Positions 37,199 through 41,892 of a DNA stretch of 57,702 nucleotides are shown piece after piece. Source of the stretch: Sharpea azabuensis DSM 18934 (lineage in GTDB: Bacteria > Bacillota_I > Bacilli_A > Erysipelotrichales > Coprobacillaceae); assembly GCF_000702165.1 (NCBI RefSeq), contig NZ_JNKU01000012.1:1-57702 (forward strand), read 5' to 3'. Below the pieces are notes generated by a model. That model saw only the letters and a program-made list of their open reading frames with translations. It did not search any database and was not told the DNA's origin. The translations under genes and the position numbers were made by a program. Every line of letters begins with the position of its first letter. Within the stretch, counting starts at the first letter, position 1.

Positions 37199-37782
37199 CT
37201 AAGTAGCCTCTATTTCTGTTCGCCAATATGCGTATGGTGGTGCATTACACTGCTGCGAATTTGGTGGGTAAGGACAAGTCAGTTTTTCAACATAGCGAAC
37301 AACATTAAATTTCTTCCTTGTTCTTGATTTCACTAAACTTTTTATAACTTCTTTAGAGACATATCCACATGCATCAATTCCTGAAACACCCTTAATTATT
37401 TTACAACCTGTTTTTATGTCTCCACCAATAGAATAAGCATTATATAACCATACCAAAATTTTATAAATAACTTTTTTCATACCTCTTCTTTTTCCACTTT
37501 GAGCATTTTCATTCTCTCCTGCGGTTTGTGAAGTAAGTATTGTCACAGATAGATCTGAATTAACAATTGAAATTGAAGTCGTTCCGTCTCCATTATATTG
37601 AATAAAAACATTTTCATCATGTCTAGATATATTATATTGATTATCAATCATGGAAATAAAAATTTCATCACCACTTTCTCTTGGAATTGTACACATTGAC
37701 TCATTAGTAGAAGGAGTCTCAACAGCTTTAACAGTTGAAATGGATGCAGAAAAAAATGTACTAAAACAATAAATATTTTCAT
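37199..37782 (-). CDS. Secreted cysteine-containing protein, signal peptide out of frame by one base
   Basis: Family not recognised. From about residue 20 the frame to 37199 is protein-like: a beta-rich stretch (ENVFIQYNGDGTTSISIV), a basic turn GKRRGMKK, an amphipathic part (IYKILVWLYNAYSIGGDIKT), and five cysteines with CPYPPNSQQCNAPPYAYW at the end. A good signal peptide, MKIFIVLVHF then FSASISTVKA, is encoded from ATG 37780-37782 but is one base out of frame. One more T in the T7 run (37750-37756) would join them. AAAGGAGAGG lies upstream, before a five-codon mini-frame whose TGA overlaps this ATG. A switched-off secreted toxin or bacteriocin-like protein, or a sequencing error, would fit. 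Confidence 0.55.
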
Positions 37783-37862
37783 AGTTTTGTTGGCATTTTT
37801 TATATACCTCTCCTTTCAATAAAATTGTGTCAAAAAAAGTCTTCAAAGATAACTTTGGAGAC

Positions 37863-38573
37863 TTAGGACAATGTTTTTATAAGATAAGTAAGTTTTTCAA
37901 TAATCGCCACAGTGACAAGCTGGGAAGTACTGATAAACTGCTGATCACGTTTGATTGTGAGTGGATATGCAATAGTCCAGTCACATAGCTTAGCCAGATC
38001 ACTCGATAAATTAGCTGTGATGGCTATGGAAAATTGTCCACTTTCATTATCTTTGGAAACAAGTGTTGCTAGATCTAGTATTTCTTTTGTATTTCCACTT
38101 ATTGATAGAAAGATATCTGCTCTTTGTTTAACCATGGAAGCATTGATGAAGAAGGGGTCACTTGATGAAAAGGCAAAGAGCCCAGCTTCTGCTAGCTTTC
38201 TTGCCCCATAAGCTGCGATTGAGGCCGAAGCCCCAATGCCATGAAAGATAATCGCATTTGTTTCTTTCAAGAGCCCTGCAATCTCATAGAGCTTCTCTTC
38301 ATAATAATCATCTTCAAGATGCTTTAGGGCTTTGATGATTTCAGTCAGATCATATGAAAGATCAACAGACTCATCTTCTTTTAAAGAAAATTTGTATTCC
38401 TGAAAGCTTTTATAACCCATTTTTGTGATTAGTCTTAAGATTGTCGCGGTTGAGATATGTGTTTGTTTTGCGATATCTCTTAGTGACATATAGCTAATGA
38501 GTTGTTGATGGGTATTGAGAAATTGATAAGCTTCTCGTTCTTTGTTTGTAAGCTTCGAAAGATCAGGATGCAT
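37863..38573 (-). CDS. RpiR family transcriptional regulator, second copy
   Basis: A regulator of about 236 residues with an N-terminal helix-turn-helix (SLRDIAKQTHISTATILRLI) and a C-terminal SIS domain (IIFHGIGASASIAAYGARKL and IFLSISGNTKEILDLA). It is a distant relative of the 32697-33413 regulator. I choose ATG 38571-38573 with GAGG upstream; it lies inside the end of the Gx-transporter gene (11-base overlap). It closes the overlapping unit from the alpha/beta hydrolase onward. The sugar-phosphate effector is unknown. Confidence 0.88.
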   Translation of the reverse strand: MHPDLSKLTNKEREAYQFLNTHQQLISYMSLRDIAKQTHISTATILRLITKMGYKSFQEYKFSLKEDESVDLSYDLTEIIKALKHLEDDYYEEKLYEIAGLLKETNAIIFHGIGASASIAAYGARKLAEAGLFAFSSSDPFFINASMVKQRADIFLSISGNTKEILDLATLVSKDNESGQFSIAITANLSSDLAKLCDWTIAYPLTIKRDQQFISTSQLVTVAIIEKLTYLIKTLS

Positions 38574-41341: not shown

Positions 41342-41892
41342 TTATTTCATCTTGACAAAGCGCATAATATACCCCAGTCCCACATAACATATGGTAATAA
41401 TCCCAACGTGAGTCAAAAGACTCAACCAGCCATTTTGACTCACATTTAAGAAGAAATAAGGAAATGGTGACGCTTTTTCGTGAGGAATAGCCATTGACTC
41501 AATTCTGCAAACACGCTGAGTATACAATAGACCATGGGAAAGATAGCCCAAATCAGTGGATCACGTTGACGATAGTACGTCTTATCATCAAATATCAGCC
41601 AATCAAAAATCACCATTAAAGGAATGATTTCATGCATGACCAGATTTCTTATTTGAAAGATCTGATGGGTTGTTTGTTGGGGCAGTAATAAGAGATTGTA
41701 GATCACAAAAGTTAATGTGATGGCAATTATCACACCTGTTTTAATGCGTAGTTCACGATTTGTAAGGGGCTTATTCTTTAGGACAAGATAAGCATAAAAA
41801 CCCATCACAACGAAATTGGGTAAATAGGTATAATAGCGTAAATGATAAAAATCACTGGGAAATAAAGCCACTAACCCAATAAAACCAAGCAA
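41342..41892 (-). pseudogene. Pr6Pr family membrane protein, frameshifted
   Basis: Two overlapping frames together make one Pr6Pr protein. The first (to 41446) ends after the family motif RNLVMHEIIPLMVIFDWLIF with RQRDPLIWAIFPMVY. The second (to 41342) resumes with PFPYFFLNVSQNGWLSLL and the last membrane segment. The break lies near 41490-41520. There is also no clear ATG and ribosome site at the 5' end: the frame is open to about 41930 with only a TTG at 41892. Likely a decayed gene, with its terminator still in place. Confidence 0.8.

What the first reader, a model, noticed from the sequence alone, without database searches (positions are those of the whole stretch)
37199..37800. Secreted protein switched out of frame at a T7 run in its signal peptide
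A good signal peptide from ATG 37780-37782 and a protein-like mature part ending at 37199 are in different frames. Adding one T to the T7 run at 37750-37756 joins them exactly at the A-x-A-like cleavage region. A five-codon mini-frame (MPTKL, stop) under the strong ribosome site ends with a TGA that overlaps this ATG, suggesting coupled re-initiation. The mature part has five cysteines, and a 57-residue hydrophobic protein follows immediately. Phase variation of a bacteriocin-like or surface protein would explain this; decay or a sequencing error is also possible.
Basis: partly seen in the sequence, partly recalled or inferred. Interest (0 to 1): 0.62.

Follow-up and report, generated by a model that had tools for sequence, protein, structure and literature searches.

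The report
Broken secreted toxin-like gene, partner kept
A gut-type bacterium carries a recently broken gene for a secreted, probably bacteria-killing protein, next to an intact small membrane protein that probably protects against it; a sister species has lost the first gene altogether but still keeps the second, which fits loss of a weapon with the shield retained better than an on/off switch.

Summary
In detail: start ATG, signal peptide and mature protein lie in three different frames, with a T7 run (37750-37756) between the last two. The protein belongs to an unnamed secreted family. I found 15 apparently intact and about 10 broken copies, all within one bacterial order (Faecalicoccus among them). 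They share a signal peptide, a variable middle and a Cys-rich C-terminal end. In most, a 50-98-residue hydrophobic protein follows within a few bases, the layout of a secreted bacteriocin and its immunity protein.

Phase variation is the weaker reading. The only start with normal ribosome-site spacing (ATG 37796) runs into the 5-codon dead end, so frame is probably lost twice. T7 is short. Broken copies recur in the family, at different sites. The sister species has deleted the secreted gene at the same locus but keeps the 57-residue gene under purifying selection (dN 0.11, dS 1.02). Homologues of the small gene also stand alone in three other genera.

Best explanation: an inactivated bacteriocin-like toxin with retained ('orphan') immunity. 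The killing function is inferred, not shown. Read-level or strain-level length of the T run could not be checked.

The parts
37834..37866 (-). Intrinsic terminator of the upstream RpiR-type regulator gene; the secreted-protein gene begins directly after its T tract
   Evidence: RNA fold -13.4 kcal/mol, z -4.0; stem visibly conserved in the sister species G001
37807..37816 (-). Ribosome-binding site AAAGGAGAGG
   Evidence: Sequence; 10 nt before ATG 37796, 24 nt before ATG 37782
37779..37796 (-). Five-codon frame MPTKL-stop; TGA overlaps the signal-peptide ATG (ATGA). Probably the original start of the gene, now out of frame
   Evidence: Sequence and spacing comparison with intact members
37648..37782 (-). 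Frame holding the signal-peptide start (MKIFIVLVHFF...), 44 codons, ends out of frame with the mature part
37750..37756 (-). T7 run between signal-peptide h-region frame and mature frame
   Evidence: the only A/T run of 7 or more in the gene
37199..37762 (-). Mature frame of the secreted, five-Cys, bacteriocin-like protein (187 codons plus stop), probably inactivated
   Evidence: Family of 15 apparently intact homologues with signal peptides; 55% identical to L009/L046
37023..37196 (-). 57-residue hydrophobic protein, probable immunity protein, intact
   Evidence: Homologue in the same position beside L009 (E about 1e-8); kept in G001 with dN 0.11, dS 1.02 although the secreted gene is deleted there; stand-alone homologues in G145, G062, G282

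Best explanation
The locus is a two-gene secreted toxin / immunity module of bacteriocin type. The first gene encodes a Sec-exported precursor: signal peptide, variable N-terminal half, then a C-terminal domain with four conserved cysteines, possibly two disulfide loops. The second gene, usually starting 2-6 nt after the first one's stop and so probably translationally coupled, encodes a small membrane protein that most likely protects the producer. In this genome the first gene has been inactivated by frame loss near its start, one break most likely by slippage at T7 and probably one between the true start ATG 37796 and the signal peptide. The immunity gene stays intact because it still protects against related toxins made by neighbours. 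Shown: family, operon layout, frame breaks, absence of the first gene and purifying selection on the second in the sister species. Inferred: antibacterial activity, immunity function, processing, and that the breaks are fixed rather than switchable.
For: Intact homologues carry signal peptides. At least 11 of 15 are followed immediately by a small hydrophobic frame, with starts 2-6 nt after the stop in most. The partner of the nearest homologue is homologous to the window's 57-residue protein. In sister species G001 the flanks align (88-91%) and 650 nt holding the secreted gene are replaced by 101 nt, but the small gene is intact, 47/57 identical, with 21 of 33 differences at third positions, dN 0.11, dS 1.02, and has an AGGAGG site before its ATG. 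Homologues of the small gene stand alone in three genera where the secreted family was not found. About ten broken copies with different lesions occur (the window's, L010, L013, L008, L014, L031, L038, L039, L043, L040), most with the small gene intact. Spacing points to a second frame break in the window. A/T runs of 6 or more are 4.3 times denser in signal-peptide coding DNA than in the rest of intact members (Fisher p 0.001), so slippage mutations are expected there.
Against: No killing or protection was tested, and no library names the family. The mature frame carries no further visible lesion, so the break is recent or the gene is sometimes expressed. A few members lack an adjacent downstream partner (L011, L045 and L028; L021 doubtful). 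Each genome represents one species, so strain polymorphism at T7 is unknown. In the window the frame breaks should weaken coupled translation of the small gene, which sits awkwardly with its retention unless it has its own initiation.
Confidence: 0.6

Rival explanations
1. Phase variation: slipped-strand changes at T7 switch the secreted protein on and off in the population, with re-initiation at ATG 37782 through the ATGA overlap.
For: The T7 run sits exactly at the frame transition. Poly-A/T of 7 nt or more near a frame transition is a criterion used for phase variation, and secreted or surface proteins are typical targets (PMC3711429). A second member (L010, Faecalicoccus pleomorphus) is also broken at a homopolymer (A8) in its signal peptide.
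Against: Seven is short and not rare: five other A/T runs of 7 lie inside open genes of the window. The properly spaced start is out of frame as well. L010's partner gene is cut short, with a transposase gene just beyond, which suggests decay. Other copies are broken by stops, deletions or indels elsewhere. The sister species lacks the gene.
Confidence: 0.17
2. Recoding: RNA polymerase or ribosome slippage on the T7 run makes a small, constant amount of full-length secreted protein, so the gene is functional as it stands.
For: Mature frame intact and protein-like; A/T runs are slippery (PMC1088944).
Against: Selection against transcriptional slippage is usually evident at nine A/T (PMC1088944). 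The run is not conserved: intact members are in frame without it. The mis-spaced start remains.
Confidence: 0.05
3. Sequencing or assembly error in the T7 run; the gene is intact.
For: Homopolymers are error-prone on some platforms, and one other genome in the set (G060) shows an apparent error of this kind (L042 against L029).
Against: Five other A/T runs of 7 lie in open genes of the window. The only other broken gene I found, a membrane-protein gene at 41345-41892, is broken in the sister species too. It would not cure the start-codon mismatch.
Confidence: 0.08
4. The secreted protein is not a toxin but a surface, adhesion or signalling protein, and the small membrane protein is its anchor, receptor or processing partner. 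(This rival concerns function and overlaps with the frame-break rivals above.)
For: No similarity to any named bacteriocin family, no fold match, no activity data.
Against: A partner that outlives loss of the secreted gene and occurs alone in other genera fits immunity better than an anchor; frequent turnover and one-sided decay are typical of toxin/immunity genes.
Confidence: 0.25

Closest known systems
Closticin 574 (Clostridium tyrobutyricum) and closticin-like bacteriocins
   Same: Sec-type signal peptide on a long precursor whose C-terminal part is the active protein (309 aa precursor, 27 aa signal, 82 aa mature; PMC10888436)
   Different: Precursor here is 174-208 aa; the closticin 574 sequence itself was not compared; no curated family in Pfam or NCBIfam matched; C-terminal cleavage not shown
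Toxin/immunity pairs with retained orphan immunity genes (bacteriocins, type VI effectors, contact-dependent inhibition)
   Same: Toxin lost or broken, immunity gene kept and under selection; orphan immunity genes are described in several systems (papers listed)
   Different: Here the partner is a 50-98 residue membrane protein in a Gram-positive-type order, and the toxin function is unproven
Phase-variable secreted/surface genes switched by slippage at homopolymers
   Same: Homopolymer at the frame transition in a secreted-protein gene (criteria in PMC3711429)
   Different: Short tract, not conserved across the family, probable second frame break at the start, gene absent in the sister species

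Membership tests
Sec-secreted bacteriocin with immunity protein | N-terminal signal peptide | tested here: met
   Seen by eye in the intact homologues; no signal-peptide predictor was available; in the window it is split between frames
Sec-secreted bacteriocin with immunity protein | Adjacent small membrane protein, homologous between loci | tested here: met
   At least 11 of 15 intact loci have one; window versus L009 partner E about 1e-8, L020 versus L030 partner E about 1e-17; partners of more distant members are not detectably similar
Sec-secreted bacteriocin with immunity protein | Partner persists without the toxin (orphan immunity) | tested here: met
   G001 same locus, dN 0.11, dS 1.02; L061, L062, L064
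Sec-secreted bacteriocin with immunity protein | Kills related bacteria and partner protects | not testable with these tools
   Needs expression and growth assays
Named bacteriocin or secreted-toxin families in Pfam / NCBIfam | Match above curated cut-off | tested here: not met
   No match above cut-off for the window protein or 17 members
Closticin 574-like bacteriocins | Sequence similarity of the C-terminal part | not tested
   The closticin sequence was not at hand; only the precursor layout was compared
Phase-variable gene | Repeat tract at the frame transition | tested here: met
   T7 at 37750-37756, but short
Phase-variable gene | Tract variable in length between strains, no other disabling change | tested here: inconclusive
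   No second strain held; sister species lacks the gene; a second frame break at the start is likely

The most novel reading that the evidence does not exclude
An undescribed family of secreted antibacterial proteins with two conserved Cys pairs, apparently limited to one order of gut bacteria, in which toxin genes are repeatedly lost, often first in the A/T-rich signal-peptide coding stretch, while the small immunity gene is retained as a shield; slippage in the signal peptide could act as a reversible producer/non-producer switch.
Probability: 0.2. Interest if true: 0.65.

Novelty: new member of a known kind. Interest (0 to 1): 0.38.

Why it matters
If the toxin/immunity reading is right, this is an uncharacterised family of secreted antibacterial proteins in gut Erysipelotrichales, with a clear natural experiment (a sister species that has lost the weapon but kept the shield) and intact homologues ready to test. 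It also shows why a single homopolymer frame break should not be read as phase variation without strain data.

Tried and rejected
Pfam, NCBIfam and PADLOC scans gave no usable match (PHROGs was not scanned); the sub-threshold hits (CFSR, DUF4179, Cj0814 family) are chance-level. Plasmid and phage tblastn: nothing. PDB sequence profile: nothing. Two AlphaFold models (pLDDT 65.8 and 75.8) gave no significant fold match in PDB or the viral library (best VIA Z 3.9 and 4.6, Foldseek E about 0.1); this is no evidence of a new fold. First genome contigs attempt failed for lack of a conserved stretch, the second gave two Faecalicoccus records. Promoter scan found no sigma-70-like site between the terminator and the start on the coding strand, too weak to use as evidence. 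Considered that lesions are concentrated in the signal peptide (window, L010, L013, L008, against L014 in the body); the counts are small and the search favours intact bodies, so no claim is made.

Full report
Observation. On the minus strand a ribosome site (37816-37807) precedes ATG 37796, which reads MPTKL and stops; that TGA overlaps ATG 37782, which starts a signal-peptide-like frame; the mature protein lies in the third frame and ends at 37199. A T7 run (37756-37750) is the only A/T run of 7 or more in the gene. The mature frame is real: 187 open codons never arose in 5000 Markov sequences, and homologues exist.

Family. Searching related genomes found homologues. I count 15 apparently intact and about 10 broken copies, all in one order; none was seen outside it in samples of 392 phylum-wide and 395 class-wide genomes. 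Two hits are named: Faecalicoccus pleomorphus DSM 20574 and an uncultured Faecalicoccus, which places the order as Erysipelotrichales (own knowledge). The organism of the window itself is not named by any tool. The family has a signal peptide, a variable N-terminal half and a conserved C-terminal part, in most members C...GxDxC...CxPxxSxxC. No curated family matches, and structure models found no relative.

Partner gene. At least 11 of the 15 intact copies are followed at once by a 50-98-residue hydrophobic frame, starting 2-6 nt after the stop in most. The window's 57-residue protein and the partner of its nearest homologue (L009, secreted proteins 55% identical) are themselves homologous (28% over 53 residues, E about 1e-8). 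This is the layout of a secreted bacteriocin with its immunity protein; the function is inferred.

Sister species. G001, the only other species held for the genus, is collinear with the window on both sides (88 and 91% identity). The 650 nt that hold the secreted gene are replaced by 101 nt, but the 57-residue gene is intact, 47 of 57 residues identical, with 21 of 33 differences at third codon positions (dN 0.11, dS 1.02; flanking genes dS 0.42-0.77). It is therefore under purifying selection although the secreted gene is absent in one of the two lineages. That this is a loss in G001 rather than a gain in the window is inferred from the paired layout in other genera. Homologues of the small gene stand alone in G145, G062 and G282, where the secreted family was not detected.

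Frame breaks. In intact members with a recognisable ribosome site the start lies 5-10 nt from it. In the window this fits ATG 37796 (10 nt) and not ATG 37782 (24 nt). So the reading frame is probably lost twice: between the start and the signal peptide, and at T7. A/T runs of 6 or more are 4.3 times denser in the signal-peptide coding part of intact members than in the rest (10 in 1260 nt against 13 in 6969 nt, p 0.001), so slippage mutations are expected just there. L010 (F. pleomorphus) is broken at A8 in its signal peptide, and its partner gene is cut short with a transposase gene just beyond. Other copies are broken by a stop (L008), an indel in the body (L014), small deletions (L013) or large deletions that leave a stub plus an intact partner (L031, L038, L039, L043).

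Alternatives. Phase variation needs a tract that changes length reversibly; seven A/T is the lower limit used in one survey (PMC3711429) and is not rare here (five other A/T runs of 7 lie inside open genes of the window). Selection against transcriptional slippage usually becomes evident at about nine (PMC1088944). A sequencing error is unlikely but untested; the one other broken gene I found, at 41345-41892, is broken in the sister species too.

Verdict. An ordinary inactivated gene at face value, but of an undescribed secreted toxin/immunity-like family with good evidence that the small partner is kept when the secreted gene is lost. Antibacterial activity and strain-level variation at T7 remain to be tested.

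Noticed in passing
window 41345-41892 (-): An integral membrane protein gene is frameshifted near its end; the sister species G001 carries a damaged copy with an additional stop, while G026 has an intact homologue of about 200 residues. Probably an old pseudogene of the genus.
   Followed up: partly
L057 5483-5585 (G001 contig C7): The 101 nt that replace the secreted gene in the sister species contain an AGGAGG site and a weak promoter-like match (TTGTCT-17-TATAGT with TG) just upstream of the orphan small gene.
   Followed up: partly
L031, L038, L039, L043 (genomes G053, G054): Stubs of the secreted gene, some in frame from signal peptide to C-terminal end after a large internal deletion, each followed by an intact small hydrophobic gene.
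   Followed up: partly
L042 against L029 (genome G060): Two near-identical stretches at distant places of a single-contig genome differ by small indels, including a frame break in the family member; probably an assembly or long-read error.
   Followed up: no
L012 2494-3341 and L040 (genome G287): Next to family members lie other small secreted-protein plus hydrophobic-protein pairs, possibly further families of the same kind.
   Followed up: no
L011 956-1216 and L045: In two divergent members a small hydrophobic gene lies upstream of the secreted gene instead of downstream.
   Followed up: no
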